Below, piece by piece: positions 2,593 to 56,800 of a DNA stretch of 64,000 bases. Positions within the stretch are counted from its first letter, which is position 1; every line of letters begins with the position of its first letter. This DNA is from Parelaphostrongylus tenuis (lineage: Eukaryota; Nematoda; Chromadorea; Rhabditida; Metastrongylidae): the NCBI GenBank assembly GCA_019055375.1, contig JAHQIW010007374.1, forward strand, positions 124,001-188,000, given 5' to 3'. The position numbers and the translations under genes are program-made. The notes beneath the pieces were generated by a model. It did not search any database. It saw nothing but the letters and a program-made list of their open reading frames with translations, and was not told the origin of the DNA.

Positions 2593-2975
2593 TATACCGT
2601 TTCTGTTTTCTTAAGAAAACACTCAGAATCAAATATATCTCATAACTGTCATTTGAGCCAACACGTCATGTGGGCTATTATGAGCCATCTGTGTTTCGGC
2701 CTTGCAACCTCTATGTATATCGGGCTGTGCAAAAGCCCATAACAGATCAGATGACATGTTGGCTCAACTAATAAATATGAGATATATTTAATTTTGAGCG
2801 CGGTCTTAAGAAAACACTCGAAATAAACGGTATGATATATTGGAAAAACAAGCCGAGAGCAATCGAGTGTCAAACACTGCCGATCCAGTGATTTCTCACT
2901 TGACGGCAATTGTGTAGATCCTTCGTCGTCGCCTACCTTTTCACAGGAGATGTAGGAGTTCCCGAAAGGATTCTT
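2593..2975 (+). repeat. Hammerhead-type repeat, copy A (foldback, degenerate)
   Basis: The right part (about 2735-2975) is collinear with the bodies of the copies near 13.1, 39.6 and 54.7 kb: 'gttggctcaa', then 'gcggtcttaagaaaacactcg', then 'cttgacggcaatt'. The left part (2593-2720) is an inverted copy of the same sequence, so the two arms can fold back. Read on the minus strand, 2685-2712 keeps half of the ribozyme: a GGUU-GCAA-GGCC hairpin followed by GAAACAC. The CUGANGA half is missing, so this copy should not cleave. Confidence 0.65.
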
Positions 2976-7700: not shown

Positions 7701-9053
7701 TATCACTAATAGGTTGGTCGTCAAATGGGTTTGGGCTACGTTTTTCGCTCTTTCGGCTCCCGAAGCGTTCTGCTTCTTCCGATCTCTTCATCGAACTCTT
7801 TTCAAAAACGTGAAGCGACCTACAATCACGCAGTTCGTTATCGTAAGTATCACTATCCACTTGAAACATGTTTATCCTTTCCATAATATCACCTGATTCT
7901 CGGTACTTTTTTTCAAAACAAATTGCTAAAGGCAAGTTTTTGAAGTCAAATGTCAGTCCGTTGATAAGAGAAAACTGAGCAGATCAAGGGCCTTTATAGT
8001 GCCTTGGTTAGCATAAGCGTCAGACAGAGTTGAAACGAGATCCAACTCCCTTCTGAGGTTTCAAGTTTTCATGTCACCAAACATTCTTTAATGCAATCTG
8101 ATAAATCGAAAATGATATTCTAGCATTATAAATGAAAAATTTTTCAGGTGCTGCTCATTGAAACCCTGCATGCAATAGGAGTTGGAGTACTTGTGTTTCA
8201 AATCTTTCCCGACTTGGATGCCATAACAGGCAAGTGACACTTCTAATCCTAGGGAAACAATTTTTTCCTATTCTTTGTGTTCAAACCCCTATGGAAAACA
8301 CTGATTACAGCAACGCAGTTAACGAGCGCAGTGGGTTTTGTACCGGCGTTATTGTCTCTGTTGAGTCGCCGGCCAAGGCGAGTTGCCATTGTTCTTGTCG
8401 CCATCGACGCTCTTGCCTTGATCGTTCAAAGTTCCGGATTTTGGTTGTTTCCGGTTTGTGAGCCTCTTCGAATTTTTTACGCTTTGTCAATGTTTATGAT
8501 TGAGAATTCCTATACTGTGAACAAGTCCGATGCGCAACACATGGCATGCTAACGTGGATTAACATTGCAAATCTGTGTCAACTTTCCAACGTTAAATTTT
8601 TTATCAGTTTAGTAATCAATTCTCCAATAAACTTTTATGTCTGATATTCCAGTCAGTTGCAGCCGCATCAAAATCACCATTCCTTTATCATTTATTAATC
8701 ATTCAAAACCGCAGTGATTCAATTTCTCGGGAGTACTGTTCAATCATTAGCTTCAGAAAGTCAAAACAATTTGAAAGGGTCTTGGAGACGTTGAAAATAG
8801 TCTCAAAGGGCTATACGTAAAGTATCTATAGAAACTTGTGTCGGTATTCTTCGTTAAGTATTGAACATTTGGAATTGCTTAGCTCAATCTTGTGGGAACA
8901 CTTCGAGAGGGCGTTCACATTACAGGCTTTCCCGCCAACTCTGCAGAAGCACTCGGTGACAATAACGTGCTGTCTGGTAGTCATCTCCCTACCGTGGTGG
9001 CAGAACTTTGTCCATGTCGACTCCGCTTTCACATCAATTCAGGCTATGGCTAG
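4702..9053 (+). CDS. chs-2: Chitin synthase exons 1-9: N-terminal membrane region
   Basis: Exons: 4702-4874, 5476-5546, 5646-5720, 6351-6442, 6868-6943, 7679-7842, 8148-8229, 8311-8453, 8926-9053 (residues 1-335). Exon 1 begins MEIIKTEP and is hydrophilic. Exon 2 carries [18 protein letters not shown], a conserved N-terminal block. Exon 4 encodes a hydrophobic helix ending [10 protein letters not shown]. Exon 6 has [20 protein letters not shown], equivalent to the conserved 'VPE' membrane region. Exons 7-9 add further helices, ending near LPWWQNFV. Every junction keeps the frame. Exon 9 could alternatively start 21 nt later, at 8947, which is also in frame. Confidence 0.88.
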
Positions 9054-12000
9054 GTATGAGAGTGTTTTCTTCGGCCCAACCTTGGTGAATATTGAGATTT
9101 TCACCTCTTTAGTCACATCAACAGTTTTGTGCCATGTAAACACTTTGGACACGACATGGCGCTAGCTCGCCTTCCCGCCGCCATGCGCGGCTGCGAGCAG
9201 TCCTCACTGGCGAGGAAAAAGTTCGATAGTGCGATCCCCATCACAAAGCTTCACAGTAAATTTTTAGGTGTTTTTGGTGCCGCTTAGCATCGAATGTTCG
9301 GTACTCTGTAATTAAAAGGAGTTAAATGAAAATACAACCTCATTCGCCGGAGAGAAATTTTAATACAAGTGTTAGTAAACATTCAAAAAAAAAAGCTGAG
9401 ACTTCAGGTCACAGCCCCAAGTTTTCAGTTTTTCAAAACTCCCCTTTATAACGCTGCATAATCCCATAATTAAACTAGCGTCAGACGCGCGTATTTCTAA
9501 CCGGACCGAGCTCTTTCTTTGAACTATTAGCAGCTATTCGATAGCATAATGGTAAGTGATTTCAACGCTGTCCTCAAATCCTGGAAAGACCATTTTTCTG
9601 CAGCACAGCACATAAAATTATTTGAATTCGCACGTGCAACCAAGGAGGTCTTTGGCCAATTCACATGCGGCTGGCTGAACAGCCACATGTGCTGGCGCGA
9701 TGTCTTAAGACCGGTGCAGGGTCTATCAATGATCGCACCAGCGCACGTGGCCGCTTCAGCTAGCCTCACGTGAATTGGCCAAAAACTTCTTTGGGCCCAC
9801 ATGCGAATTCAATTTACTTTACCTGCTGCGTTTTAAAGAAAGGTCTTTTCAGGATATAAGCGTAGCGTTGAAATACAATTATGCTAATGAATGATTACTA
9901 GTAGTCCAAAGGAAGAGCTCTGTCCGCCTAGAATTATTCGCGTCTGCAACGCAGGAAATCTACTTCTGTTGCAGTGTCAAAAAGGGCTTCTCCCAAAGCC
10001 CGTAATGTGAACTGTAGCCTAAAGTCTCAGCTTTCAAATGATCATCCTCTCCAGCGGATGATATCGGTTTTTCATTTGCTGCCTCATAACAACGAAGAAC
10101 TGAAGGTTCTTGTATAACGTTAATATTGTAGCAAAAAGAAACGCTCAGTTGTTGAACACTTCATTATTTTTTGATGCAAAACGTAGGTATGTGTAGTAAC
10201 AACGCATACTTAATTTTTCCCTTTTTTCCAAAGATGTTATAAAAGTCACATGTGAAAGCATTTTTTAGAGTGTATGTTATATACGGAAGTGTATTAGTAC
10301 CACGTTGATTTCTCACGCAAAATTCGGCACAATCATTTATGTTACAGTGTTACGATATGAGAAATAGAGGGTTATGGTGTGTTACTGATATGTGCATATT
10401 GAATTGGAGGGAAAAAAGCACCAGAAAAGTGAAATGAGGTGTCATGAGTAGGGATCGAACCCGCAACTTTCTTCCCATTGGTCTGCGTCACTAACCACTC
10501 CGCCAAACGAATCCATCGCGGACCACATATGGCGGTGGGACAGGTTGGCAAGCAGGTCTGTCGTATTCAAAGTGTATTTACTGGTGCCCATATGTGACAA
10601 AATTCAAACAAGAATAAGTCACGAACGTGTTTGTAGCGAAAAAGTTATCGATTAATCTAAAACTTGCCAGAAAAGGTTGTACATCTTTTCTCGTTGTTTT
10701 CCAGTAGGAAAGATTCCATTTCCCTTAGGCTCTCTAGTCAACGAATTTTTTTAAAGCGGAAACCTCTGGAAGATTTATGTAGAATCACTTAGTATTTCAC
10801 TCAGAAAATTAACATACTTATCTATTATAATATCGGTCACTCTACTTGCAGATTTGCGTCTCTTCTTTCTGAAAGGAGATCGAAGACATATGTAATTGTC
10901 TCCTTGTGGAAAATCTGCATCTACCTTCTATGTATGACTACTTTCACAACTTCGCGGTCAGTTCGAACCTTCCAAGTCCTAAAGATTGTAGAGATGTGAG
11001 CAAGAATAGAACTTGAAGTGGGCTTCAACCCATCGAGTTCGCAACAACCCCATCGAAAGTCTTCAAGTTTTCTACAAAGGCTTTGCTTTATCTTTCCGTT
11101 TCTTTGATCCGTGTAGGTGTTATTATCAATCAACGCTACGATCTGAGAGCACAAATGAGACTAGATATTTCAGATGGGCTTTGAACCTGCGATTTCGTTT
11201 TCCCAACATTTTGGGCAAAGGAGCGTTCTTAATGGTGTAGTGGACATCATAAGAGTCTCGAAAAGGTGATCGCGGGTTGAAAACCCAATTGAAATTTGCA
11301 GTCATGCTCGTAATAGGTTGGAAAGAAAGTCCTAAAGCACTTGTAAAAAGTTGAACTATATGTCCTTATTTTCACTTTGTTTTAAGCCTTCGCCATGTCC
11401 AACGTTACATTGAAGTTCGCGTTTTGTTACGTCATCGCTGATAAAAAGGTCTTTCACAGCAAGCTGCAGTCGAGTAAATCAACGGAGTTGAAGAGGAAGG
11501 TACAACATGCAAATATACTGCTGGACGCTCGTTTCAACGCTTCTCAATCCGGCAAATCTTGACTTCGGAGACAAGCCTCATCTAGGGCGTCCAACAAAGT
11601 TGAGCAGCGACGTTTAATTGCTGCTTTGGAAGATGAACCTTCATCAAGCTTGATCACTTAAATGGAGTTAAGGTTCTGCTCATCCCGCCTACAGTCCAGA
11701 TTGCGCTCCATTCGACTTTGACCTTTTCCGTGGAAGAGGATATGGGTAGTTTATGACACTTCTAACTACTGTTTTACACACGCTCAAATGCTAGAACATT
11801 ATGGAAAAACGACACAGTCATTGTTGTCTACCAGATGTCGAGCATATGTTGGGGAATTGGTCTGCATAAGAAAAGCTGTTGTTTCTCGATTTGGCTACAA
11901 TGAAAAGTACTGATGTCTCTAAAATCTTGTGAAGTGGTAAGGTCTCTACAAAAAGACGTATTCCAGCAGCGTACAAAGTTCCAGTAGCGCGTTCAGCGCG

Positions 12001-15000
12001 TGAAACTCCCTGTTTGGAATCATGCGCTTGCTAGAACAATACATGTGGGCTAAAAATCTGCTATCGATGTACACAGCTTTCGTGTAGTGGCACAATAATC
12101 TCAAGCCGCCATCACGTCTTTATCGATTGCAAAAAACCTATAATCAAATCAATCCGAAAGCACATCAGTTTATGTTTGCTCTCATTGGGGTTTCCAAACG
12201 AAGATATCGGAAGCTTTCATTAAGGACGGTCCTAAGTCGAAAAAATGTGATTTTCAACCTGATCTTTTGAGAAGGAAAAGAAGAAGATACGACTGTTTCT
12301 GTCCTTTGTTTTTCACTCCAAATCTGCACATCATTTACTTGATGCACAAGAGATATTTTGTAGATACGGACCATTAGTATTGATTGCGCTTCGGGAATTA
12401 GTGTTCTGAAGATACATTTATGTTCTAATACTTCATTAAAGCACGTCTTCAATGTCAATGATTTGTCGGGCATATACGAAGAAGAGATCGTAGATGGTCG
12501 AGAATGATACAAAATTACTCCACCACAAAAGCAAAGTAACGGCGGCGAAAACCATTAGAAATGCCACGGTTGGAACGGAAGTTGTGGGGTAGTTCAATGA
12601 GCATGAGATAACTCCCATACATATCATGAGAATATCACAGTTTTTGTGTGGGGATGTTCCCACTGAAGGGCTAAATAATATTCGTCTTTATTTTCACTTT
12701 GTTTTAAGCCTCTACTATAACCAACGAACGGTCAACCGAAAGCGCGTTTTGACGCAGCAAAGACAAGCTTGATGAATTGGAAGGAATCGAAGTTCTGTCG
12801 CATCCCGCCTGCAGTCCAGATGGCGCTCCATTCGAGTTTGACCTTTTCCGATCAATGCAGCGCTTTTTTGAGGGGTCGTCGATTTGAATCGTACTGTGAA
12901 GTTGAAGAAGCATGTCAAGAATTCTGTGATGCAAGGTCGAAGGAATGATGCTCCTACCAGATGCGAAACTTGTCGGACCGATGGAGAAAGTCGTAGAAAA
13001 TGGTGGCTCTTATTTTGAAGAACAGTTATTGCCGTTGTTTGGAATTCATGCGCAAATTATCAATTTTAATAAGTGCTATAATAAAGCAAGTATAATAAGG
13101 GCTTCAAATGACAATGAAAGGATCTATTGAAATTGAGCGTAGTCTAAAAGAAGCACTCGAAATAAAGGTATAATTATGATAAAAGTACCAGCCTAAGAGC
13201 AATCGAGTGCGCAACACTTTGTGTTGGGTGAAGGTTTCACTTGACACGGAGTGTAAAGCCTTCGTCTTCGTTGACTCTCTATAAGGAGTGTGAAGCTCCC
13301 GAGAGAACTAACTTCAAAAGACTGAAGGACGACGGGTTCTGCTCGACTGACGAGTCTGTAAGGACGAAACACGTGTATCGGGCTGTACAAGAGCCCTTAC
13401 CAGATCACATGACAAGTTGGCTCAAATAATAATGAAAAGATTCAATAAGTGCCCCTAAAACTTTCCCCCCAACCTAATATTGTACAAATGTTGAAACCTT
13501 GCAGTCCTAGTTTTTAGTAAACTCCACCTATCAAATCGCACTACCAGCGATCTAAGAGGCAGAATCGGAACATTTGAAAAGATGAGTCGACCTCACGCTC
13601 AGATGTAAACTGCGATCATAAGAACAAACTGTTTGTGAATTAGATAGTTTGTTAAATTATGCCAACCTTTGTTCACATTTCAATGTGATGTGAGTATCTC
13701 AGCACTTCTAACATTCAAATTGCTCCCTTGCATTCATCCTCCACAAACTTCTTCATAATTTTCGTGCATTGTTTTGGCTTATTCAATGGAAACTTCGCCT
13801 TCTTCTCCAATGTCACGGAATGTTGTTTGAGTCGAATCTTCCTGCAATCTTGGAGACAGCGCAGTTAATGCGTTGTACACGTGGATTGCAGCAGAGCGTT
13901 GTGCCGAGGTGGTGGAAACAACATTTTGCTTCTTGTAGGACTGCACCATTAACCACTTTGCTATCTTCCATCCAAAAAACGATAAACCAAGGATCTAACT
14001 TATATTTTTAACGGACGCTGTATTTCACAGTGTTCCAAATTTCTACACACATGTTCGGGTACGTTGTGCTTAATATGACCAATGTCGTCTCAAAAAAAAG
14101 GAAAATTTGATGAGCTGTGATCTATGAACCTACTATCAAAAGAGCTGTTTATGAAAAAGCTCGTATAGGTTCATTTTTAGCACATCTTAAGCTTCTTCAG
14201 CGTCAGAGCGTTCATCTGGTCTTAGTCATCTCCCTGTATGATTGTGGTTTTCAGGATGCGGCTCAACGATCTACTTCAGCGTGATCCATTCGGGGAAAAG
14301 CTCATCACTATCACCGGTCATAACCTCAACAAAACACAAATCGATAAATTTCTTATCAGAATGAGCAAATACACTGCAGCAGGTGTAAACGACTTAATGC
14401 TAATTTCAACTCAGAACGACTTTCGTGTTCATACTATTCTTCCCTTGCTAAAACTGTTCATAATAAAGATCATTTACGCCTTTTCGATTAGCAAAATTTT
14501 TTTTCTGAGAACACTGCTCATTCCCATATCTCATGAGCTGTAAACAAAGTCGGAATCAAAAACAGCCGGATAGTAAGAGCTATTTGCCACATTTTCAAGC
14601 GTGTTTATTGACATTCTTTGGAACAAATTTGAAAATTACGATCTGAGCTGACGATTTTGATTTAGTTTCAGTGGAGACTGGTATTCCAGAATGTGCTTCT
14701 AAAACTAGAACAGAATTAATATTTACACCTGGGATCACAGACGAACATTATGAAATAGTAGTACTGTTTTTAGATTATGATGAAGTCACCACACGACCAC
14801 CGATGACGACGCCATGGATAACGAAGAAGGTAAGCGCTTCGGGACGGCTTGCAGCTGCAACTTGTCCATTATGGCACTACACTCAGTAGAGCTTCTAGTT
14901 CTCGATTTCTTACTGTATTGCTTCTTTCTACTTTGTGTTTGCGATGGGCTCTATACTAATTCGTTTCTTTTTCACGCCTTGTTTTACTGCATAGTTGTGA

Positions 15001-18000
15001 TGATTTAGATCAGAAATGAAAGGAAATTGCACTTGTAAACTTGAGATGAAATCTCTTTCTTGAATCTCCATTTTATTCTGGCCTCCAATTTCTATTGGCT
15101 GATGGTATGAGACTGGATTAAGATAAAAGTAAAATCATGAGTGCTTCCAGAGACCGCAAGAAGTCGACACCGGCGAGTACAGAATGAACCGAACGAAGAG
15201 ACAAGTGGACGATGACGATGAAATGCCGTCAGCTTTTACTGTCAGTTGATGGTTCGATGTTTGTTATCGATATGATCACCTGTCCCTTGTTCTTTGTTAT
15301 TTTGCCAGATTACCTGTTCATAGGTAATGAGATATTCGTTTGATTTCTTAATTCCTATCTGTTTTCTCCGTAGCAGGGTACGACATGAAACACAGGAATG
15401 CGAGATACTAGCAAAAGTTTGATCGTGTGTCCACATCGTTGTGGTTGATAAGAAAGCTATTTGATCTTGTCTGCAGCTGTCTCACTACCCTCAATTTACG
15501 TAAGGGTTTGCTGGCGCGGATATCCCAGAAGTAGGCGAATTGGCTCCATCAGCATTCAACGACTTTTACAACGGAAGCGAAATTCCTTGAGCATCCCCGA
15601 TGTTATATGAATAGAATACGGGAATGCTGGAAATTAAACAACATGTGATGTCGTGTTTCTGTTCATAGAATATTAGAAGTAGTCGAGATTCCAGAAATGA
15701 GTGCCAAATACATACCTTTATTTAGCTTAAATGTGATAAAGAAGCTCAAGTGCAATAGTGCAGATGAGTAATTCGACTTAATCAGAATTCTTTTTATTTG
15801 ATCGCCTTTTGCCGGACAGAGTGAGACTGGGTCGCATCCCAGCTGACGCAAACGCTTTTGTACACCACTCCACATCATTGGGTATATTGCAACATCATAA
15901 AACCGCAAGAGCCACTAAATAAAAAGAACTCTGATCGATTATTGATACCGAATATCTGGCAACGCAAGTGGGTTCAGTGTCGATAGCGGTTGCCCACGTC
16001 AGACCATTGATGGTTGGCTGTAGACAGATAACGCGTTGTAGCGTAAAAAGAGTAGTGGCAAAACTGGCGCCGGTAGTGCAGTGGTTCGGCGCGCACCGGA
16101 GAGAGTGAGATCTGGGTTTGAGTTCTAGCTACGCAAACGCTCTTGCACACCAGTCTACATTATTGGGTTATATTTGGACTTAGTTTACTTGTAGAGCAAT
16201 GCACACTGTTAAAAACGGTAACAAACTCAGATTTTCGATTTCTGAACAGCTAAATAAATTCATGCATGTCTAAAGAATCTTTAAAAAGCTAAAAGTCTGA
16301 AAGGGATTGAAAATGCTAGTTTAAGGTATATGAAACGCATGTCGAGCTGAATCAGTTCACCTCGCCGTATGACGCTCTTTGGATCGTACTCGTGCAGGTG
16401 TCGGCTGTTTTCCTCTGCTACCAGAGCAGTTTGTTTGCGTGCAAGGTGAGCTTATGGTTGAGTGCTTAGTTTTAACTGCAATGTCTGAGCAGAATAACGC
16501 ATTAATGCCTCTCGTAAAGGGGAAAATCATTATTTGATTTTTTTAGCGTGTCATGCTGAATAAAAGAACTTTGGGATTCCATTGATTAGTGGAACGATAT
16601 GGCAGCAGTTTCTTATGGTATGTTAAACTGCTGAACCATAAGTCACTGACACGAAAACAACCCACGTTAGACGGTTATGAAAATAGATGGTGCACGATTC
16701 TACAGCACACAAAAGCCTCTCAGAAGCTGTGATACTCTGTGTTCATTGGAGAGTACCCAGTTGAAAAAGGCTAGTTAACCAACCATACTAAGATAGGAAG
16801 CGGCCTTTTGTCGCCTGTTTGGCTTCTATTAGACAAATTTATGAAGAAGCTCCTGAGGGAGCACATTGCGGAGGATGTGATGCCTAGCTAGAGGCTATCT
16901 CTACTCGAGAACGGATAGGCACCATTGCCTTTACAAATCGACATTGACGAGTGGCCACGAATACACTTTAGGAGAGCCCATGGTTGTTTCCTTTACGAGA
17001 ATACTCGATTCCAACTGACCATGGTTGATCTTGATCATCATGGCATCTAAAAATCATCATCTAATTTCGCTGATCTCCTATCTTCAAAATTTACTCCTGA
17101 AATCCTCACCATGATCTTAAAGTCTTTTCGCGAACCACATTTTTGAAGAAATGAGGTCTCTTTGTAAGCTCACTTGATCATTAAATTGACAGGACACAAT
17201 TTTCGTTAAATATTAACTGGCATTGATTTTTAACACGTTGGGAACCACTTGATTTTGTGCGCGGCGGCGCGGCGAGCGAAGTTTCTTCACTTTGCTAAAA
17301 GTCGGGGAAATGAAGGCCATCAAGTGAAGCTTTCTCCTCTGGTACCTTTGAGGCTGTTCGCATACACAAACGCATTGCTCTCAATGGATAACTATAGTGC
17401 GATGAGGAAACCTAGAAGAACTATTGGCTAAGTCATTCGTTGGGCAACGGAAATGTAAAAGACACAGGTTAATGAAGAAAATTCAATAAAGATGGACGAA
17501 AATAAAAATGGATAATGTAGTGGAAACAGACTGTATCAAAGCATGAAGTTATTTTATTGCGAATGTATTTAGTTCATGACATTTTTAACAAGTGAAAAAA
17601 CAGGATCTGTAAAGTTTTCACACACAAAAACTAAGGACGTGAGAAATTAAAAACAACAGTTCGAATGTTGGTTGTGATGAAATCATCCATACAATGATGT
17701 GAGTACTAAAACAAGGATTTTCAGGTGATGATGCAACGTCTAGGCTTCGCATTACCAATGGCACTGGCCGTTCCGACCACCGTATTAGTGCTTTCCACTA
17801 CTTGTACATTCAGAGCGGAAGACTCCTGCCACTTGACCAACACCCTCACCAAGGTCTGAGTTTGGGCTTTGCCTTGGAAATAATCGGTCTTCTAATTACT
17901 TTATTTCGCAAGAATATGCTTCTTACGCATTATGGGAGAAGTTCTGAGATCTCATTATAAGATGAATTTGAGACATCTCATTATAAAATGAATTTAAGAC

Positions 18001-21000
18001 TATTGAGCCTAATAGCTACATATTTAATAGCGATAAATGGCAGTATAACATATCATTATTATCTACGAAGTTATAAAAAGTGGCGATAGACATGTCGTTC
18101 TGGCAATGGAAAAGGTATCTTAGTCACTTTACTTGACTGCCGAATGGCGATTTGTCGAAACTCTCCCTTTTCAAACTCAGGAACTCTTCTGGAAGTGTTT
18201 TACGTCGTATTCTTCATTACCTGTCTTAATCTCTTCGCCGCAAACATGGATTTGGGTGAGCTGGTTCATCAGTCAGTGCTGGATCACCGTGCATTTGTGG
18301 ACTCCTAAACATGAAAGGCTGGCGAAAAGTGAGAAGTGAGGTTTCAACTACTTTTTACTGCCACCTGAATAAAGAGTGGATAGAATCACTCGCACAAGTT
18401 ATCTACAAGCAACTGCCATAAACACGCAAGCTATATTATATTGGTGTGATTTAGGCTATTTATACTTCCTTACTTTGTTGGTGCTTTTGTCGACCAATCG
18501 CTGTCGTTCAATCGACGACGAGACGACAAAGCTAAAATTAGACCAGAGGTTTGAGAGCTTAAACTTTGTTTATCCAAGTATTTTGTAAACTGACTATTAT
18601 TGGAATAATGGACTTGGAAAATATAAAAATGATGAATATCGTGACACTAATAGTTAGCTCTGCTGTTCCGATATTCCTGCACTTTCTTCACAACCACTTG
18701 TGTACGTAATTATAGGACTTAGAGTTCGATCAGGAAATTACCTCACTGTCATACGAGACAATGTTTGGAACAGGACGTCATGGACTAAAACCACCTCCGT
18801 CGCTAAGCAGTTTGAGCAGCAGCAAGCTGGAAAGCGGCTTGATCAGGTGCATAATCCGACAGAGAGCAGCTTGAGACAAAGCTCACACGGCTGATAACTA
18901 AGTGTGTCTTTGCAGAGACTCGGCAAGCAGTACGGACGCGATCACGAAGATCTACGCATGCGCGACAATGTGGCACGAGACAACGCACGAAATGACGTGC
19001 ATGTTGAAGAGCATTTTTCGTATGGATGAAGATCAGTGCGCTCGTCGCAATGCTCAAAAATATCTCAAGGTATTCGTTCGCACCGTATAAGTTCCATTCA
19101 ATAGATTCTGAAAGCATAGCGCTCTAGAAATCCTCTAAAATGAACACTGATTCCAAAAGATTGCTATATAGGACAAAATAAATTGGTTTTGCCAAATAAG
19201 TGCACTTTCGCAAATTTCTCCTTTTTCAATTTTTTCCCTTGTTTTTTCCGTCCTCAGGGCAAAAATCAGTATCTTATAATCTTTCAAAAATTTGAGCAGA
19301 GTTGATTTCTATAAGATTAATAGTATGTCCTCAACGGGATTATGAGAAGTTCATATTTATGAAGAAACCTGGAACGTCTGGAACGATGCCGCTTTATTCT
19401 ACGCAGTTAGCTTGAAAGTGAAGAAAATTGCTACTTCATCGTGCAAAGAGAGTAATTAACCACCATTCCTTCTTGTTTCTAATTCTTTCCAAGTCCTCAA
19501 GGATCGAACTCTATCCTCCGTCAATAGCATTTTTTTTATGATTAAGCTAACCCCATGTCGCTGAAACTTCATTTGGCCAAGGTTTAGGTGTCTCCGTCTT
19601 TTCCAAAGCCGGTGATGAGAGTCGATTTTTACAGTAATTTATTTTGCTGTGAGTCTTCGTTGTCTTTGGGTCAAATTTTTTTAGTGGAGCAAAGCTCGGA
19701 TGTAGTACACTCATTCGGCTATCCCTTTTATACAGGATGGTCTACGTTAAATGGCTATTGACTGTGGGAAATCAATTCAGATCACTGGCCTCCATCATAA
19801 CAAAGACGGTGAAGCCTTGCCAATTAAAGTTTTATGGTTTTTTCGGTTATCCGAGAATACATGTATATTTGACCTCATTCAGTGGGCAAGAGATTTTCAG
19901 AGAAGTGCTAGTAAGAAATAGAAATCTTAAATCTCTGGCTACAGCGCTATCTATCCGGTTTTCGAAAAAAACCATTTTGCAATTCTGTACCATACAAAAT
20001 AAAGTTGTATTTCACAGCCGCCGTGCGCTTTCATTTTTATTACGAGTGCAATTTCTTGAAAGCACGAAAAGCATATGAACGTGTAGAGAAAATCTCATAG
20101 TATCTGAGTCATTTGTTTCATCTGTAGTTTCTTTCAAAGCAGAGAAGAGGTTACCAATTGAATAACAAGTTACACCTTACATATCTAACGCGGCAGATTA
20201 TCGATCGATCGCCCTGTCCGTCGGTTAGCCAGTAAGCAAGCCGCCAGATACGTGAAACTCGATCTTTTTTCCCTAATACATTGCAATGGAGTGGTCTTTT
20301 CAAAATGTAAGCACAACGTTGGAATCATGAAATTTATGCTATTGAATGATTCCCAATAGTCTAAAGAAAGAACTCCGCCCGGCGAACTATAAAGCACAAA
20401 TATTTTCTTCCTCCTACAGCGCTATCAAAGCAGCATTTCCAAAAAAACAAACACATTTTTGAGTTTTTCGAGACCAGTGTTGTCGAAAGAGTACTAAAAC
20501 TCTTAGGAAGGAGTTTTGTCCAGTGAAATATAAGCGCGATAAAAAGAGAATCGCGTAGTGCATGTGAAACATAATTTCATTCTAGATGCTGCAGCTCTAA
20601 AAGAAAGACTTTTTCAAAAGATGCCCAGATAGTGCGCTAGCCAAAGAGAAAGATGTCGAATGATTACTGACATTCCTGTGAAAATTTGTTGCCCGGAGAA
20701 TGAGGTCAAATATTTGTCTCGAATAACCAAAAAGATCCGCTTTTAATTAACGTTAAGGTATTAGCTCAATCATCGAGGGAAATGTTTCTAAATGTTAATG
20801 TCGGGGTAAGAGACAAGCCGGATTCTAAAATATTACGCTCTGCCTTCTAAGTGGAATTAACAACTTTGCGATTTTGTGTGTGATAGGTTCATCATCCGCG
20901 TCTTACATTGTACTGTTTCATCGACAAATTAGAGGATTTTATCCAAACAAGATTGTCTTTTCCATCGAATCATCATTTATTTGGAATTTTGTTTAACGCT

Positions 21001-39000: not shown

Positions 39001-42000
39001 AAAATTGTGCCCCAACTGAAACTCGTAAAGCAGTAAGTTGCAAATGACTTTCCGTAGCGCTACATTGTTGGACATGTATGTATAGAAATATACCAAACGA
39101 TGCTGAAGAAAATTCTGCACAAAATAGGTAAAAGAGAAATTTGTTTTTATGGGAAAACTTTGGTTCATGGATCAGGTTCGAAAACATAGCTGGAAACACA
39201 TATATATACATATATATATATATATACATATATATATATGTTTGTATACATGTGTATATGTATATATGGTACTTTTCCGTTAACTCCATCCTCTTTGAAG
39301 TCTTCGGTGAAAACGCATTTTGCTGTAAACGTTTCAAAAGTCATTCGACAGCTGGGATCAGGTAAATCTAAACAGTATATTATATTTCTCAAATGGCCTG
39401 ATTTCAGGTTGTGGAAATGAAATTTTGTTCCACATTCAAGCAAGTCTCGCCGGATAAAGTTTTTTTCATAAGCAATCAGTAACAGAGCGAATCTTACAAT
39501 TTCAGCGATGTACATGGTTATCAAAAAGTACTCTTTGAAGCGATGTAACAAAGTAAAAAATCTTTATTTCGTAGGTTTTATTAAGATCACGCTCAACTTT
39601 CAGTAGATCCTTTCATTATTATTTGAGCCACCACGCCAGTGGCCTGGTAAATGGACTCTTGTACTTGGCTCAAATAATAATGAAAAGATCTATTGAAATT
39701 TGAGCGTGGTCTTAATAAAACACTCGAAATAAAGATATAATATGATAAAAATACCAGCCAAAAACCAACAGAGTGTACAATACTCTGGGTTCGGTGACAT
39801 ATCACTTGACATACAGTGTAAATCGTACGTCTTCGATACCTCTCTGTAGGGAGAGCAGGCTCCCGAGAGGACTAGCTCATAAAAGGATTGAAAGACAACG
39901 GGTTCTGCCCGACTGACGAGACTGTGAGGTCCAAAGACGTGTATCCGGATATACAAGAGCCCATTTACCAGACCACATGACATATTAGCTCAAATAATAA
40001 TGAAAAGTTAAAAGATTATTAGGTTTTGCAAGTTTCGATCACTTTTGAAGTCCGCATAATTTTTGACCTTTTGCAAAGGTCGAGTTTTTCTATATTTTCA
40101 AGAGGTCTAACATCTTTTCAATAGATAAAATCTCGACAATTTTGGAGATATACTTTATTACTTGAAGAGCATCATTAATGCACTATAACAGTAAAAATAA
40201 AAATATCTCTCACATTCAAGCATTTCTCGCTGAACAAAGCTTTTCCGCTTAACTGTTGATAATCATTCGATGCTACAAATCTCAACGATTTTAAAAATAA
40301 AGTTCGTCTTCAGAATGCACTTTTACGAGCGCAGTGGCAATCAGAAGAGATTTACTTTTAGCACAAAGTCAATATGCTGCGAAAAGCTCGGGGACTTGTA
40401 ACCAGTGATGCGAGATTTCATCCTTTGGAGACAAAACCCAGTAATCTTTTTACTGCTACAACGCTCTTGAGGAGTTCGTTCCGAAAACAAACTACGATTC
40501 TAAAATCGATAAGATCTGCGCTGTCGAATGATTGTCGGCTCCTTATAGAAAACTTAATCCGACGAGAAATGCTTGAATGTGAAACAAAATTTTATTTGGA
40601 CTATTAGAGAGCAAAAAGCAATCCATGTGAGGAGTAAATTATACCGTTCAAATTCATTTAATTTTCGCTATAGAATGACTACTTACATTCGATATAAAAG
40701 CAAAAAATGCACTTTCGCCAAAAGTATTAGAGAGGGTGGAGAAAACGGAAAAGTGCCGTTTAGATATCTCGTTGCGGACTGCAGGGGTCAGTGTGACCCT
40801 TAGCTGGGCGCGTCGTTCGAACGGGCTACGAAATGTGGTGCGTATTCCAATAAAAATTCGGGTTATTCCAAAAATTAATACGTTTCTGGAATCGATGTGA
40901 TTTTCGCTGTCGAATGGTTTCGATTCTTAAAGAGTCTTGATGATATTTCACTGATAAGACTCCTGTATACATGATTCTGGAGGATCAACGCCAATACAGC
41001 TCAAAACCTTTCCTTTTTCAAAAGAAAAAAGCCTTACAATTGCGAAAAGGATTAAACTCTCAACTGTTGCTGGGCATTTCCTCATATGTTCTTGATGTCT
41101 TTGTAGTCAATAGATAGCTTGAGAACTTCTGACTCTATCACTTAGCTTGTTAATTGAAAATATTCCCACAGTAGGTTCTAATCAGAAATGAAAGATGACG
41201 CTTTCCAATCGTAATCCAATTCTTCTAATTGAAAGCGGATTTTTGGGATTATATAGTTTCATTTCGGTTTTTATAGATGCTTATGCTACAAATAACTTAG
41301 ATTATCGTTGAAAAAGCTTTTGTAAACGTGTTCATGAGAAGAATAACGCTCAATTGTCTTGAAAATCTTTACTTTTGGAAAACTTTTGTCGCATGCAACC
41401 GTATTTCAACCGGATTACGCTCGTGATCTTTGGCTTTTTCTACGAAAGACCTAGACCACTAGATTATCAGTATTCATTTGATAGACGATATAAAGTGAAC
41501 TCGAACGGTTTTTTTGTTTCTCAAATGGCTTTTTTTTTTGCTCTTTAACAATTGAAACAAAATCTTGTTCAACATCTGAGGATTTCTCACTGAATAAAGT
41601 CTTTTCCACTGACACTCAAAAGCCGTTAATAGTGCTAATTTTATCGATTTCAAGAACGAAGTTTAATTTTAGAGAGGACTCCTTACAAAGCTGTGACAGT
41701 CGAAAGATGATTGTTTTGCGCTCTTGAAAGGGTGGGATTTCGCGAAATTGGCCCTCAGTCATCGTGTCTTTAGCATCAACTAACTGAAACGTATTCTTCT
41801 TCTAATAGCTAAAGCACAATAAGGAGTTATTTTCAAAACAAATTTGTATGGAAATCGTCGCGATTTAGAATATCGAAGAGTTATTGGAAGCTCAGTGGAA
41901 AAGCTTTCCTCAATGGGTAATGCCTGAATGTGACAGATATTTTGATTTTCACTGTTAGAGCGCATTGAAAAAGCCATTCCAAAAATGAAGTGCACCATCA

Positions 42001-47896: not shown

Positions 47897-50800
47897 ATGA
47901 GTGAAATGCGATTCTGGAGCACTTTTTTCTTTTGCTTTCTGTTCGTCTACCAATGCGTCGGTATCCACTGGCTGTGAGTTTTACAGTATTTAATAGTATT
48001 TTTTATACACTAAGCCAACAGTAGATTTCCAATATTTTCACTGAGGTAATATCTAAAGATCGTCTAGGGCCAGGTTAGTTTTATAACTAATCGCCAAAAA
48101 CGGCGGCTCACGACTTGAATTTTGTGGTGAGTATTAGTTGGAGTTCTATTTCACAGAGGTTCACTAGGAGTCAGGGAAAACAGAGTTTAGGAAGAAACAA
48201 GCTTTCTTAGAATTATTCACCATTGATGCAACAATGGGAATGCCAGTGAGTTACATACAGCCACACAGTCGTGACGGCGACAGCGATGAGTTGTTCATTT
48301 TCCCGAGTGTTTTAGTGTGTCGAACCACATTTTCTCCGGCAATTTCGGTGTATTAATGTGCCACGTTTGCTTCAAAAGATAGCATCATGAACTGTTACAT
48401 CGGTAGGCCACCAAGAGTCATCGTAAAGGCCGATTATGCGTTCAAATACTCAAACGATGTTTGATGAAATTGAATAATGGCGTATTCGCTAAGGATACAG
48501 CAACGCCGAGAGCTTTGGGAGAACATTTGCCGCGCGAAGTGTAGTCACTTCTTTTTTTTCTTCCCCTCCCGTGGAAATACTTGTAACTCATTAGTACATG
48601 TTTCCCAAAAGCTCTAGCCTTAGCCTATTTGGCATGGGAACAGAGGTGGTATGCTTTTATCGCTTGCGTTTCGAAACAATTTCGTGATGCTGCCACTTTC
48701 GCCGCGGTGTATTAAAGCATTCAGGAACTACCGGCCAGTTCTCCTCAGGAACTTTTGTTAGCGCTGTGCCGAGTGATGCAGCGTATCACCAAGCAAGGTG
48801 ATATGTAAGACTTTAGTGCAACTCCTTATCCCAGTACTTCTTCGAAATCAGTCAACTGACATCTCCTTAGCGCATTGACATAGAGGTTTTTACCTAGAGC
48901 CTAGAGAAATTTTCTAAAATCGTGTGCTTAAGTCATCTAGGTCCTAAGCACACAATTTTAGAAGATTTCAATGAGAATAGTTGCGGCTTGTGATCTTTGA
49001 CATTTATGAGGAGATGAATTTCTCACAGCAAGCAGAGCAGCACATGAAACATTCGATGACTTTCAAGAAGGATTATTGTGAGAACACAAGTCGAATGCAA
49101 ACGCTGAGATCCTCAAAGCAACTTATTATGAAGAGTCGTTCAAAAATAAAGCAGTGACTTATACTTGACTGACCCGTTTCTGGTTCCAGGGCTCTTGGAC
49201 TCAGTGGAAACCGTCTCGACCGGTCCAGAATTGCCTACTCATGCAAGAATATGAAAGGATTAACAAAAAAGCAAATAAGGTGAGGTTCCGTAGAAAATCA
49301 CACGGTAGTTAATCATCAGTGTAATCCATATTGTTCTCGATTCGTGTGATTATAATATCACTTGAGCACATAAAGTAGCAAACTCACCTTCCATCTCGAT
49401 ACGCATACAGCTGCTCACTGAGCTCCACTAGTCTAGGGGCACGAGGACCATAACTCAGCCATTCGAAGCCCTTTATTTTAACCTTTTCTACCGCTAAGCT
49501 GTCGACAAATGCGTTGCCTAGTTTTACTTGGTTTTGATCGATTTGATGCCCATAATATAATAAAAGTGCAAGCATATTTACCTACACAGGTGTGGGAGGT
49601 TACAAGATGATTGAACGCAATAAAATTTGAAGCCTCTCCCTTGAATTAGTAAAGCTCTCAGATGAATCACAAGCCGTTGTGAGCCTGTCTCGTCAATTAC
49701 ATATAAACCCCGTGGGGTACGTGCAACTAATCAAATTCAGATCTTCACATGATCGACTCACAGAGCACCTTGATGCTTTCTTAATGTTAGTTGAAGATAC
49801 TCATACTTGGTCTAAACACCAAAAGCAAGGCAAACTAAACCGGCTATTATGCTGAAGACGTTACAGATTTTGTCGAAAAAATCCCGACATGATGGAAAGT
49901 GTGCGGTACGGAGCCCAGAACGCCTACGCCGAGTGTCAGTACCAGTTCAACAAGCGAAGGTGGGCAACAAAGATCACTTCACGCGCAGGTTACATCTTTG
50001 ATGAGGAGAATCTGCGACGTGACCATGTTCTAGTCAAGCAGGGCGACATGGTTGTCTGACGACATTGTGACCCAGGCGGACTGCAACCTCATCCACATCG
50101 TAAGTCTTCACTAATGGCAATATGTCCCAGATGGAACTGCACTCTGATCGATCCGGTGACTCTGCAGCTGATCAGCGACGTGATGATGCGAGAAGGAACC
50201 CGAGAATCGGCATTCGTTCACGCCGTCTCTGCAGCAGGTGTCGCATACAGGTTTGCTTTCATCGTGTGATCTGTGTTATGCAGTGCTATGCATCACATAG
50301 AATCTTTCACAAGTTTATCTTTTACAACCATTTATCAATTGAAGGGTAACGCGAGATTGCGCTCGAGGTTTGAACGAGCGTTGCGGATGCGATCAATCTA
50401 GCGTCACTACCAATCCGCAGGTGAGTACCGCTCAGCAACTAACTGTATATCAATATGCCAGGTAATGACTTTTTGAGCCACGCACGTGGTCTGTTATACT
50501 CATAGAGCCCGATACACGTGTTTCTATATTGACAGCCTCCTCAGTCGAGGGGTATCCTTTCTTATATATTTGTGTATATTCGAAACACGTGTATCGGGCT
50601 CTATAACTCTGCCCTATTTAACAGACCATATGAGTGGCTCAAAAAGTGATTATCTGGCATGTTAAAATTTGAGCGTGGTCTTGAAAAAACACTCGAAACT
50701 AAGGGTAAAACCGTGCTTCGTCCTACTATTATATTAATAGTTTACTTGCGTGACGATTGGCATAAAAAATTTGTCAAAATTTTGTTTTAAGCGCAAACTT

Positions 50801-53800: not shown

Positions 53801-56800
53801 TTCTTTTTGCTATGTCCTTCGAAATTCGCTTGCTTTTTCTCCTTCAAACTTTTGTCATCTGTATTTGTCTGCTACAGGCCATGTGCTGAACTTATTTTGA
53901 AACCTTGACAATTTCTCTTTGCCATCCCAACCTATCATTTTGATTTTCAGTAGGATACAGATTTTTGTAGCTCTCACCAATGCGTTTGTCACGAGATGTC
54001 CAACTTCGTTGCTTAAATGCAGCGATCTAAAAGTCAGTGTGCTATGAAAGGAAGGCAAAATGTCTATTCTTTTCAGAATGTTCGCACTTTAGCTAATGGA
54101 CCTAGAAGATTATAGTAAGTAAAAAGTAACTCTTCTATTCACTTGTCCCGGAAATTTATCAGCTGAGTAGAACTACATAAATTTTTGTTCAAATCGCTTC
54201 CGAACCTATGCTTATGTTCAATGCAGCACCTCAAAAACACAGCAAGCAGCTTCGATAGCTGTCATGTCAACATTTTTTTGTGAAGGTAAGGGGATTCCGA
54301 TCTGCCCTATGGAAGTTTGCCACCTCCACCTTGTGAAATTTCTCCTTTACGTAAGTATAAGTACAAGTACAAGGTTTGTGGAACCATCACTAAAGATTTG
54401 AACGTATATTGTTCTAACTTTCATTTACTGCCTATTCTGTTTCATTGGTATTCATTGTACACAATGTCAAGTATAATCACAAGGATTAAGTCATAATCAC
54501 AAAATATTGCCATTTGTTTTGAGGGTTATTTAGGATTACGCTTAAATTTCAATATATCTCACAATTATTATTTAGGCCAACATGCCATGTAATCTGTTAA
54601 TGGGCTGTTGTGCAGCCCGATACACGTGCTTCGGCCTCGTTAGTTGGGCAGGCCTTTCGTCTTTAGCCAATCCTTTTAGCTCAAATGATAATTATGAGAT
54701 ATATCGGAATTTGAGCGTGGTCTTAAGAAAACACTCGAAATAAGCGACATAATATATGGAAAATACCAGCCAAGAACAATCGAGTGTACAACACTGCCGA
54801 TCTAGTGATTTTCACTTGACGGCAATTTTGTAAATCGTTCGTTGTCGCCTACACTATATGGGGCATGTAGGGGTCTCTGAGAGGATTGGCTAAAGACGAA
54901 GAGCCTGCTCGACTATCGAGGTTGCTCAAAGCCAAAACAAGTGTATCGGGCTGTACAAGAGCCCATTAACAAATCACAAGAGTGTTGAGATATGAGCAAA
55001 ACTTAGAGCCTCAAGTGGACCGCAAATCCACTTAGCTGTTTTCGCGTGAAATCCACCAAACTTTTAGGAGATTTTGCTTTGTCTTTTTGTTAACCATGTT
55101 TATAATATAGCATCGTAAAATGGTATTTTGCATTTTGTTGTCGTGAAGTGCCGGAAATTCAAGGCGAACAAGCAGTTTCAGTAGGCGCTGTTCGTCCAAA
55201 TGATAACAAGAACGAATAGAGAAAGGAATTTGATATGTCGTGCTCATGTGACACATGAAAGACTGAGGAAACGTCCAATGGTCTCGGCAGTCATCTCGCT
55301 ATCTGTCCTCTTATTGGCAGTGTATGACACCGACAAAAGCGCGTCATAAGAGGATTAACATCCACGACACAACGTTATTTAGCGCTCAAAAAAATGCTTA
55401 CAATACGTGGCTACTTAAAAATAGTCGCATACTGCTTAATGGCACCCGTATCAAAACTGACAGAGCGGAATATTTCGATATGACTTTTAAGCGATTCAGA
55501 GTGGATCTGCAGTAGTACTAGCGACGTCAACATGTTTTTTAAACACTGTGTAATCCTGCTAGTGATTACCACATTAGCATCCTTTGAAGTTTCTGGAGTT
55601 GTCGAAATTTATTCGTCTCTTTTCAGTGGTCCACTGCGCTAAATTGGTCAGTGAGCCAAATATTAAAAAAAATTCTTCATTTGGTCATGGCTTCTTTTAT
55701 CTGAATGGTCATTACATAGTGCAATCCTATCAAAAATGAGAAAAAAATGTGAAAAAAGACCTACCACTCTTTTAACGGTATTGTAATCAGCTAAGTCTTT
55801 AGAAAGAAACAGATGTAAATTGAAGTTTTTCAAGTGGACCAAAGTACAGTGGCAAAACCCGGCTTAGTAGATATGTCAGCTTAGCTTGCCTTCAAGAACG
55901 AAATGGTGGATAGTAAATGGAAGCAAGATGATTCGCCTACGCTTCTGTACGAAGGGTCGCTTCACACAGAATTAGAACACAGCATGACTGGTTCATAATT
56001 ACCCTGTTGAGTTCGCTTTCTGCAGTTGAAACGCAATAAGTCATCCTCTTGATTTTTGAGCGAACAACACGCCGTTAAAAAAAGAGTCGTAAAGCGCTCT
56101 CATTATTGAAGGGCGATCCACGTATTTGATGTTCGTGTCCGTATCTATACCATTGCGATCTACGTACAGCATTCCGTTCTACTCTGTTATCACTGGCTGT
56201 CATCGATGTCTCGTGCTTATGCAAGCGGTGCTTATCTCTATCTTAGAACACCAAAAAATGGGGCTGGTGGTTGGCTTAAAACACCAAAAACCTTAATTTC
56301 GCTGGAAACGATCCATTTTCATGTGTATCGCTCTAAGACGAGCGCTGAGCCACCTTAATCATCTAAGCCCAGTGAGGAGTTTAGGTGCTAGAGAAAAGTC
56401 TCCGACGAGAATGTAAATGTCATGGAATGAGCGGATCCTGTGAAATAAAGACGTGCTGGAACACGCTGCCTACGTTCAGGTCAGCACGTTTTGGTCAAGT
56501 TTGAAAATGTTCATGGACTAGAACACAATAAAATCGGATTAAAATGACTTCAGAAGAAGAATGTTTTTCAGAATCCATCATAAGTAAAGCAAACCGAATG
56601 TTTGATAGAGAAATATTACCAAACTTGAATTCTTTCAGAGAGATCGGTGTTATTATCAAGGACAAGTTTGATGGTGCATCAGAAGTGACGATTGAGGAAG
56701 AGGACGAGCAACCGCGCATTGTTATGAAGAACTCACAGTTCAAACGACACACTAACGCTGATCTGGTGAGTACAGGAAAGATTGACCCTTGAGGGACGTC

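What the first reader, a model, noticed from the sequence alone, without database searches (positions are those of the whole stretch)
13334..13396. Complete type I hammerhead ribozyme in a nematode intron
All invariant hammerhead nucleotides are present in the right order. Stem I pairs 7 bp outside and 5 bp inside, stem II (GUCU/GGAC) is capped by a GUAA tetraloop, and stem III is the minimal ACAC/GUGU. The internal loop of stem I (G opposite CUGUACA) is positioned for the usual loop-loop contact with loop II. Short-stem-III hammerheads are known from Penelope-like elements and retrozymes (de la Peña and colleagues). I do not know of this one being described in this gene or family.
Basis: partly seen in the sequence, partly recalled or inferred. 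Interest (0 to 1): 0.88.

Follow-up and report, generated by a model that had tools for sequence, protein, structure and literature searches.

The report
Self-cleaving nematode retroelement moved by Penelope
The short self-cleaving RNA in this worm genome is one copy of a small non-coding jumping element present in thousands of copies, and the way the copies examined sit in the chromosomes suggests that they are carried around by the worm's Penelope-type retrotransposons, something so far only proposed for such elements.

Summary
The hammerhead is real: all invariant residues sit at 13334-13396, Rfam Hammerhead_1 scores 27.8 bits (E 0.012 for the window, below the gathering score 34), and stem II covaries between copies. 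Two corrections. Stem III (ACACGUGU) is a palindrome: only 2 bp plus a tetraloop in cis, 8 bp between two copies, so a double hammerhead is the likelier active form. No gene or intron was found around it (8001-23000 only).

It is not a lone ribozyme but part of a ~318-nt non-coding unit of the metazoan retrozyme kind, with 4,529 pattern matches in this 481-Mb strongylid-like nematode genome. Of 48 loci examined, 39 are two head-to-head, 5'-truncated arms; 33 of these have one arm ending at site P (~65 nt past the cut) and the other at site D (~117 nt), none has two alike. Target-site duplications, where detectable, are most often 12 bp. The genome's autonomous Penelope-like elements show the same layout, P/D asymmetry (12 of 14) and 12-bp duplications. 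This is structural evidence for a published but untested proposal: that Penelope machinery moves animal retrozymes.

The parts
13334..13396 (+). type I hammerhead ribozyme: stem I 7 bp outer + 6 bp inner, stem II 4 bp with GUAA loop, stem III palindrome
   Evidence: sequence; Rfam RF00163 27.8 bits; covariation of stem II across copies
13354..13365 (+). stem-loop II GUCU-GUAA-GGAC
   Evidence: second pair is U-A, A-U or G-C in different copies (7, 6 and 1 of 14 hand-picked rows; 61, 6 and 2 of 73 rows, with 3 U-G and 1 gap)
13369..13376 (+). palindrome ACACGTGT: 2-bp stem III in cis, 8-bp stem III between two copies
   Evidence: sequence; energies (cis; double hammerhead -46.7 against -36.3 kcal/mol for two single ones with stem III left open, with a 20-nt A linker)
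13377..13378 (+). predicted cleavage between A13377 and U13378
   Evidence: position of H17 in the hammerhead alignment; cleavage itself not tested
13100..13440 (+). retrozyme copy, one arm: one unit plus the first ~20 nt of the next unit, ending at site P
   Evidence: local 500-841 of WIN13 = 13100-13441; boundary q 21
13065..13076 (.). left 12-bp target-site duplication TTTAATAAGTGC
   Evidence: 11 of 12 identical to the right one
13441..13452 (.). right 12-bp target-site duplication TTCAATAAGTGC
   Evidence: 7 of 5000 random 60-nt stretches of the window match it as well (the sites themselves were not excluded)
13077..13099 (.). short stretch of unknown origin between left duplication and the arm
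   Evidence: reading
39562..40005 (.). older copy, head-to-head: (-) arm 39562-39664 ending at D, (+) arm 39665-40005 ending at P; decayed hammerhead 39900-39962 with A-U in stem II but GAA changed to CAA; no clear duplication (5 nt)
54538..54981 (.). old head-to-head copy: (-) arm 54538-54637, (+) arm 54681-54981 (outer end unassignable), decayed hammerhead
2604..2931 (.). old copy: inverted piece 2604-2685 (self-repeat I4), direct piece 2715-2931; only the direct arm was found by the arm search
50447..50704 (.). old copy: inverted pieces including two inverted hammerhead 3' halves around the centre; only the (+) arm was found by the arm search
   Evidence: (I9)

Best explanation
The motif is the hammerhead of a non-autonomous, non-coding retroelement (a metazoan-type retrozyme) of a strongylid-like nematode. 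Multimeric transcripts cleave after A13377, most likely as double hammerheads, since stem III is an 8-nt palindrome that pairs well only between two copies. The multimeric or circularised RNA is then used as template by the reverse transcriptase/GIY-YIG endonuclease of a Penelope-like element. The enzyme cuts the two target strands about 12 bp apart. Each 3' end primes cDNA inside the template: one at site P, ~65 nt past the hammerhead cut, and the other at site D, ~50 nt further on. Each cDNA runs to a variable, usually truncated 5' end, sometimes several times round the unit, and the two are joined head to head. Shown here in the loci examined: the hammerhead and its covariation, the copy number, the head-to-head partial tandems, one P and one D end per assignable insertion, 12-bp duplications, and the same features in the autonomous Penelope-like elements of the same genome. 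Inferred: cleavage, circularity of the template, and the identity of the enzyme.
For: Copies: 1,106 exact 30-mers and 4,529 pattern matches, reversed-pattern control 0 in both; 4,902 first-look candidates, 40 scored. Tandem spacing is ~316-321 nt. Close neighbours among the 100 places listed per pattern (the two lists overlap): head-to-head -+ 9 of 10 (of) and 13 of 20 (of); tail-to-tail 0 and 1. Outer ends: 33 of 39 two-armed loci are P/D, 0 P/P, 0 D/D, 6 unassignable. Flanking identities of at least 9 nt: 17 of 39, against 3 of 1,482 cross-paired flanks; exactly 12 nt in 9. Arms of 1,162 and 1,025 nt (L010, L011) need a multimeric or circular template. Penelope-like elements of the genome: RVT_1 + GIY-YIG in each of 3 ORFs tested, inverted -+ order in 15 of 18 close neighbours of the listed motif places, P/D in 12 of 14 two-armed loci, none alike, flanking identities of at least 8 nt in 12 of 12 of these against 1 of 132 cross pairs. 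Distance from the (putative) hammerhead cut to P and D: about 55-70 and 101-120 nt in the Penelope-like elements, 66 and 117 in the retrozyme. Published Penelope hallmarks are the same: inverted pLTR, 31-bp tail on one of the inverted pLTRs, 8-10 bp duplications, head-to-head (PMC3846280 passages); in the Anolis element, two internal RT start sites and cutting of both strands (PMC11167929 main text).
Against: The tail sequence of the retrozyme is not that of the Penelope family examined; matches to it in Penelope loci were retrozyme copies by my reading, or were not followed up, so the partner element is not identified. 5' ends of arms are only loosely enriched around the hammerhead (25 of 92 in 257-294, 10.9 expected) and not at the cut itself (4 of 92 at 274-280, 2.0 expected); there is a second, unexplained excess at unit positions 1-20 (12 of 92). 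Within the family the hammerhead is hardly more conserved than the rest (0.049 against 0.063, p 0.07; core residues p 0.27), in a sample partly chosen by its hammerhead. 19 of 39 two-armed loci show fewer than 7 nt of flanking identity. The window copy is one-armed. No expression or cleavage data. In vitro the Anolis enzyme showed no strand difference in start site and did not need the hammerhead. Many of the loci were chosen by me because they had several matches or inverted pairs.
Confidence: 0.82

Rival explanations
1. The element is a deletion derivative of a Penelope-like element (an internally emptied pLTR) that moves by Penelope machinery; the hammerhead is an inherited relic and cleavage plays no part in its spread. 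(It agrees with the best explanation on the mover, so the odds overlap.)
For: Same order and similar spacing hammerhead - P - D as in the Penelope-like elements; in vitro the Anolis hammerhead is dispensable for insertion; 5' ends of arms are not focused on the cut; hammerhead not clearly more conserved within the family.
Against: The hammerhead is of the fuller type with an extended stem I and a GUAA loop, unlike the minimal motif of the Penelope-like elements here, which Rfam does not call at E 1 in the six loci scanned. Stem II is kept by compensatory change between subfamilies (86 of 100 listed places keep the first three pairs; 35 of 48 distinct stem-loops against a mean of 17.7 after shuffling). 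No primary-sequence kinship with the Penelope pLTR was found (hits lie in retrozyme or retrozyme-like copies by my reading).
Confidence: 0.2
2. The retrozyme is moved by a LINE, for example the RTE-like element seen at 34.6-38.3 kb.
For: LINE-type fragments are present in the window (RVT_1, 5e-13); LINEs move many non-autonomous elements and can make inverted 5' pieces (recalled).
Against: Two preferred ends ~50 nt apart with one of each per assignable insertion, both arms with 3' ends outward, and 12-bp duplications shared with the Penelope-like elements are Penelope hallmarks. The duplication length of the LINE was not measured.
Confidence: 0.05
3. A single functional ribozyme in an intron that takes part in processing of its host mRNA.
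For: Intact core at 13334-13396.
Against: Thousands of copies, inside a mobile unit flanked by a near-perfect 12-bp duplication; no gene found around it within 8001-23000.
Confidence: 0.02
4. Chance resemblance to a hammerhead.
For: Rfam score below gathering; modest folding z-score.
Against: 1 descriptor hit against 0 in 100 random sequences; covariation; two sister copies score 33.1 and 31.6 bits.
Confidence: 0.01

Closest known systems
Metazoan non-LTR retrozymes (Cervera and de la Pena 2020, PMC7229834; passages and sections 14 and 17 read)
   Same: Type I hammerhead, ~320-nt non-coding unit of 44% GC in tandem, thousands of copies, weak stem III suited to dimer action, coexisting Penelope-like elements.
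   Different: Nematodes are not among the phyla named in the parts read, and the word does not occur in the main text. Most copies examined here are short head-to-head partial tandems with one P and one D end and ~12-bp duplications; that paper proposes Penelope-like elements as movers from shared hammerheads, tandem copies and coexistence. Absence of a primer site was not tested here.
Endonuclease-containing Penelope-like elements (Adineta vaga, PMC3846280, passages read; Anolis Poseidon PAc, PMC11167929, main text read)
   Same: Inverted head-to-head layout, tail on one inverted pLTR, ~10-bp duplications, internal RT start downstream of a hammerhead.
   Different: The element here has no long ORF; its hammerhead is of the fuller type; one-P-one-D pairing is counted here over 39 loci (33 P/D, 6 unassignable).
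Rfam RF00163 Hammerhead_1
   Same: Full-length alignment with all core positions matched.
   Different: 27.8 bits, below the gathering score of 34.
Plant LTR retrozymes (PMC4918200, seen in search listings only)
   Same: Non-autonomous retroelement with hammerheads, RNA circles proposed.
   Different: Type III hammerheads in LTRs, 4-bp duplications (as stated in PMC7229834).

Membership tests
hammerhead ribozyme, type I | all core residues in order and three helices, stem I open | tested here: met
   stem III only 2 bp in cis
hammerhead ribozyme, type I | compensatory base changes in helices | tested here: met
   strongest in stem II; in the 73-row alignment the count of doubly changed pairs alone is not above the slid controls
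hammerhead ribozyme, type I | self-cleavage at H17 | not testable with these tools
   needs in vitro transcription
Rfam RF00163 Hammerhead_1 | score at or above gathering (34 bits) | tested here: not met
   27.8 bits; two sister copies 33.1 and 31.6
metazoan retrozyme | type I hammerhead once per 150-450 bp tandem unit | tested here: met
   unit spacing ~316-321 nt
metazoan retrozyme | many copies | tested here: met
   4,529 pattern matches
metazoan retrozyme | GC below ~45-50% and no protein-coding region | tested here: met
   GC 0.44, longest stop-free stretch 67 codons in a dimer of the unit
metazoan retrozyme | no LTR, primer-binding site or polypurine tract | not tested
   not searched for
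metazoan retrozyme | duplications longer than 4 bp, when present | tested here: met
   9 nt or more in 17 of 39 loci, 12 nt commonest
metazoan retrozyme | expressed as circular RNA | not testable with these tools
   no transcript data
Penelope-like element (as mover) | inverted head-to-head pLTR layout | tested here: met
Penelope-like element (as mover) | optional tail on one of the inverted ends | tested here: met
   33 of 39 P/D, 0 alike, 6 unassignable
Penelope-like element (as mover) | same duplication length as the autonomous element of the genome | tested here: met
   12 nt commonest in both: 9 of 39 retrozyme and 7 of 12 Penelope loci
Penelope-like element (as mover) | shared tail sequence with an autonomous partner | tested here: inconclusive
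   not shared with the one family examined; other families not surveyed
Penelope-like element (as member) | RT + GIY-YIG open reading frame | tested here: not met
   longest stop-free stretch in a dimer of the unit is 67 codons

The most novel reading that the evidence does not exclude
Animal retrozymes are satellites of Penelope-like elements, and Penelope integration is an obligatorily asymmetric two-site reaction: in each insertion one target strand starts cDNA at the proximal site P and the other at the distal site D of the template, giving two head-to-head arms, one with and one without the tail. Circular or multimeric RNA made by the palindromic double hammerhead would be the natural template.
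Probability: 0.5. Interest if true: 0.78.

Novelty: new variant of a known kind. Interest (0 to 1): 0.62.

Why it matters
What moves animal retrozymes is an open question: the 2020 papers name Penelope-like elements as candidates because of shared hammerheads, tandem copies and coexistence. Here 33 assignable copies of a family with thousands of members carry the Penelope integration signature itself, in a genome whose autonomous Penelope-like elements show the same signature. The one-P-one-D pairing also gives a concrete, testable model of how Penelope enzymes make both cDNA strands. It adds nematodes to the hosts named in the texts that I read.

Tried and rejected
Rejected: lone intronic ribozyme (copy number); chance motif (controls and covariation); LINE as mover (insertion signature; the LINE's own duplications were not measured). 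Led nowhere: Rfam at gathering threshold; Rfam miRNA hits in the window, which I read as simple repeats or inverted hammerhead halves; finding a gene around the motif (only 8001-23000 was covered in six frames); a Penelope family with the retrozyme's tail; a sharp peak of 5' ends at the cleavage site; extra conservation of the hammerhead within the family (sample biased because L070-L087 were chosen by an exact hammerhead 30-mer). Searches for print: 'hammerhead ribozyme + Penelope-like + retrozyme' (13 of 13 listed), 'hammerhead ribozyme + nematode + retrotransposon' (15 of 16 listed), 'hammerhead ribozyme + Penelope + dimer' (13 of 13), 'Penelope-like + nematode + GIY-YIG' (6 of 6), (15 of 29), 'retrozyme + Penelope' from 2021 (7 of 7), 'hammerhead ribozyme + nematode + genome' (12 of 55), 'retrozyme + hookworm' (none), (12 of 21). 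In the listings, abstract beginnings and passages that I saw I found no report of a nematode retrozyme or of a Penelope integration signature on retrozymes; the word nematode does not occur in the main texts of PMC7229834, PMC7761336 and PMC3088659. Subscription papers, preprints and supplements were not searched, and the 2014 paper of Cervera and de la Pena (recalled) was not held under the DOI tried.

Full report
The observation. The 63 bases at 13334-13396 (+) hold every invariant hammerhead residue in order. Rfam Hammerhead_1 aligns over its full length at 27.8 bits, E 1.3e-4 for 701 nt and 0.012 for the whole window, but below the gathering score, so nothing is reported at that threshold. 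A core-and-stems descriptor finds this one site and none in 100 random sequences of the same dinucleotide make-up; a pattern written after seeing the motif was also unique, with 0 of 100 shuffles matching. In cis only A-U and C-G close around ACGU; the hammerhead fold is not the minimum-energy fold (-16.6 against -20.2) and stem III adds nothing (-17.2 without it). Two copies can share an 8-bp stem III; a double hammerhead is predicted at -46.7 against -36.3 kcal/mol for two separate ones with stem III open. The PMC7761336 passages describe weak helix III and dimer action as common in metazoan type I hammerheads.

It is a repeat. The unit around it recurs at four more places in the window. The whole genome is held (G000, 481.5 Mb, 5,105 contigs). 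An exact 30-mer of the hammerhead occurs 1,106 times and a pattern allowing other stem-loops II 4,529 times; the reversed-pattern control is 0 in both. After the hammerhead the unit begins again, and direct neighbours are ~316-321 nt apart. The unit is 44% GC with no stop-free stretch over 67 codons even as a dimer. The best relative of the genome's Penelope protein is an unnamed 73% match; the named ones are led by Necator (59% identity), Ancylostoma and Haemonchus, with Nippostrongylus further down (8,000 candidates scored), so the host is a strongylid-like nematode; its species was not established.

Covariation. In 14 divergent copies picked by hand from 73, the named structure pairs in 91.5% of cells; the covariation score is 0.189 against 0.116 shuffled (0 of 500) and at most 0.067 when slid. 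In all 73 distinct copies the figures are 93.5% and 0.112 against 0.091 shuffled (0 of 500) and at most 0.047 slid. There the pairs with a change on both sides number 6, which 18 of 500 shuffles reach and some slid versions equal or exceed, so the signal rests on stem II and on the overall score. In the 100 listed places of the broad pattern the first three pairs of stem II are standard in 86; among 48 distinct stem-loops in 35, against a mean of 17.7 and a maximum of 26 after shuffling (letters copied by hand; the first G is fixed by the pattern).

Insertion architecture. 43 genomic retrozyme loci were analysed together with the five window copies (48 in all). 25 come: 7 given by the tool and 18 from 20 regions that I chose among its matches, two of the 20 being duplicates. 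8 were chosen as head-to-head pairs from the list. 10 were taken in list order from the isolated places of that list, skipping one (C8). 39 loci have two arms, head to head, each arm a 5'-truncated stretch or partial tandem with its 3' end outwards. The outer ends fall mainly at two places of the unit: P (at or below 40, mostly ~20) and D (46-82, mostly ~72); these bounds were set after seeing the ends. 33 of 39 are one P and one D; none is P/P or D/D; 6 could not be assigned. In the ten taken in list order, 6 are P/D, 2 unassigned and 2 one-armed. If ends were independent and equally frequent, 33 of 33 unlike pairs would have a chance of about 1 in 10^10 (arithmetic). Short identical sequences flank the whole structure: at least 9 nt in 17 of 39 loci, against 3 of 1,482 cross-paired flanks; 12 nt is commonest (9 loci). 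19 of 39 show fewer than 7 nt, so the duplication is not detectable everywhere. The window copy is one-armed, ends at P, and has a 12-bp duplication with one mismatch (13065-13076, 13441-13452).

The Penelope-like elements. GIY-YIG domains give 1,723 first-look candidates; 150 were scored and all 150 exceed the cut-off, many in inverted pairs. I fetched 20 loci chosen for pairs and long frames; the longest ORF has 902 codons, and the three ORFs tested carry RVT_1 and GIY-YIG. Downstream of the ORF, 19 of these 20 loci carry a minimal hammerhead-like motif (CTGAAGAAGGCGAACTGCCGAAACGTC and close variants; L069 differs more); the exact motif occurs 1,200 times in the genome. Rfam does not call it at E 1 in the six loci scanned; that it is a hammerhead is my reading. 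In one search, 40 loci (L030-L069) were scanned: 31 gave 47 outer ends (two further motifs ran on into a tandem), of which 41 fall at 82-97 or 128-147 nt from the motif start and 6 elsewhere. Of 14 two-armed loci, 12 are P/D, none alike, and 2 are unassignable (L041, L065). In those 12, flanking identities of at least 8 nt occur in 12 of 12, against 1 of 132 cross pairs, and 12 nt is commonest (7). In the Penelope copies P and D therefore lie about 55-70 and 101-120 nt past the motif's cut, and in the retrozyme 66 and 117 nt past its cut. Inverted -+ order holds for 15 of 18 close neighbours of the 100 listed Penelope motifs.

How it compares. Passages of PMC3846280 give, as the typical Penelope structure, an ORF between pLTRs plus an inverted pLTR, a 31-bp tail optionally at the 3' end of one inverted pLTR, 8-10 bp duplications and head-to-head as the most frequent inverted layout, and report a host gene moved in trans between pLTRs. 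The main text of PMC11167929 shows an Anolis Penelope protein that cuts both strands and starts cDNA at two adjacent internal sites past a hammerhead, which explains the tail; there the start sites did not differ between strands and the hammerhead was dispensable. Sections 14 and 17 of PMC7229834 describe metazoan retrozymes in rotifers, platyhelminths, annelids, crustaceans and insects, among others, and propose Penelope-like elements as movers because both have type I hammerheads, occur in tandem and coexist; the word nematode does not occur in its main text.

Mechanism and its limits. Long arms (1,162 and 1,025 nt) that begin at an internal start site need a multimeric or circular template. 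The 5' ends of arms are enriched broadly over 257-294 (25 of 92, 10.9 expected) but not at the cut (4 of 92, 2.0 expected); positions 1-20 also hold 12 of 92, unexplained. Uncleaved or circular RNA thus fits better than cleaved linear monomers. Not shown: cleavage, circles, transcription, and which Penelope family acts. The retrozyme tail does not match the Penelope family examined, and within the family the hammerhead is hardly more conserved than the rest.

Verdict. The element fits the metazoan retrozymes on every defining feature that was tested here; what is new is the Penelope integration signature on its copies and the one-P-one-D pairing in both element types.

Noticed in passing
L009:552-575 (-), viral contig IMGVR_UViG_3300013125_000012: The exact 24-mer CTGACGAGTCTGTAAGGACGAAAC lies in a contig of the viral collection and, by reading, belongs to another hammerhead-like fold with different stems I and III; the core alone is no sign of kinship.
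   Followed up: partly
L057:292 (-), L062:2868 (+), L062:2549 (-): A second hammerhead-like family (such as CTGACGAGGAGGCCGAAACCTCCGAAACACCGGTGT in L057), there also with a palindromic stem III (ACACCGGTGT); the two in L062 are head to head.
   Followed up: no
L056:5711 (-), L067:727 (+), L041:41-104 (-), L041:289-352 (+): Further hammerhead-like variants in the same genome; the two in L041 are head to head and have A-U where the window copy has U-A in stem II.
   Followed up: partly
19 of the 20 Penelope-like loci L050-L069 (L069 has a more different form): A conserved minimal hammerhead-like motif with an extra A before stem II and palindrome ACGT as stem III, 1,200 exact copies in the genome, not called by Rfam at E 1 in the six loci scanned.
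   Followed up: partly
50500-50606: Rfam lists this as a below-threshold mir-3149 match (42.1 bits, gathering 100), but by reading it spans two inverted hammerhead 3' halves; head-to-head retrozymes can mimic miRNA precursors.
   Followed up: partly
34596-38306, ORFs 35262-35777 (-) and 36589-36921 (-): Fragments of a LINE with RVT_1 (5e-13) and a weak endonuclease match; it looks RTE-like (recalled); two similar pieces repeat 3.6 kb apart.
   Followed up: partly
11681-11730 / 12801-12850 and 11357-11404 / 12679-12726: Repeated pieces just upstream of the retrozyme; the first pair looks like mariner transposase remnants by eye (recalled); no Pfam match in six frames.
   Followed up: partly
L022, L023, L024: Three different contigs have nearly the same inner junction (arms starting at about 4-8 and 129-134), which may point to a preferred joint or common descent.
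   Followed up: no
22426-22636 and 39200-39267: CA and AT microsatellites.
   Followed up: no
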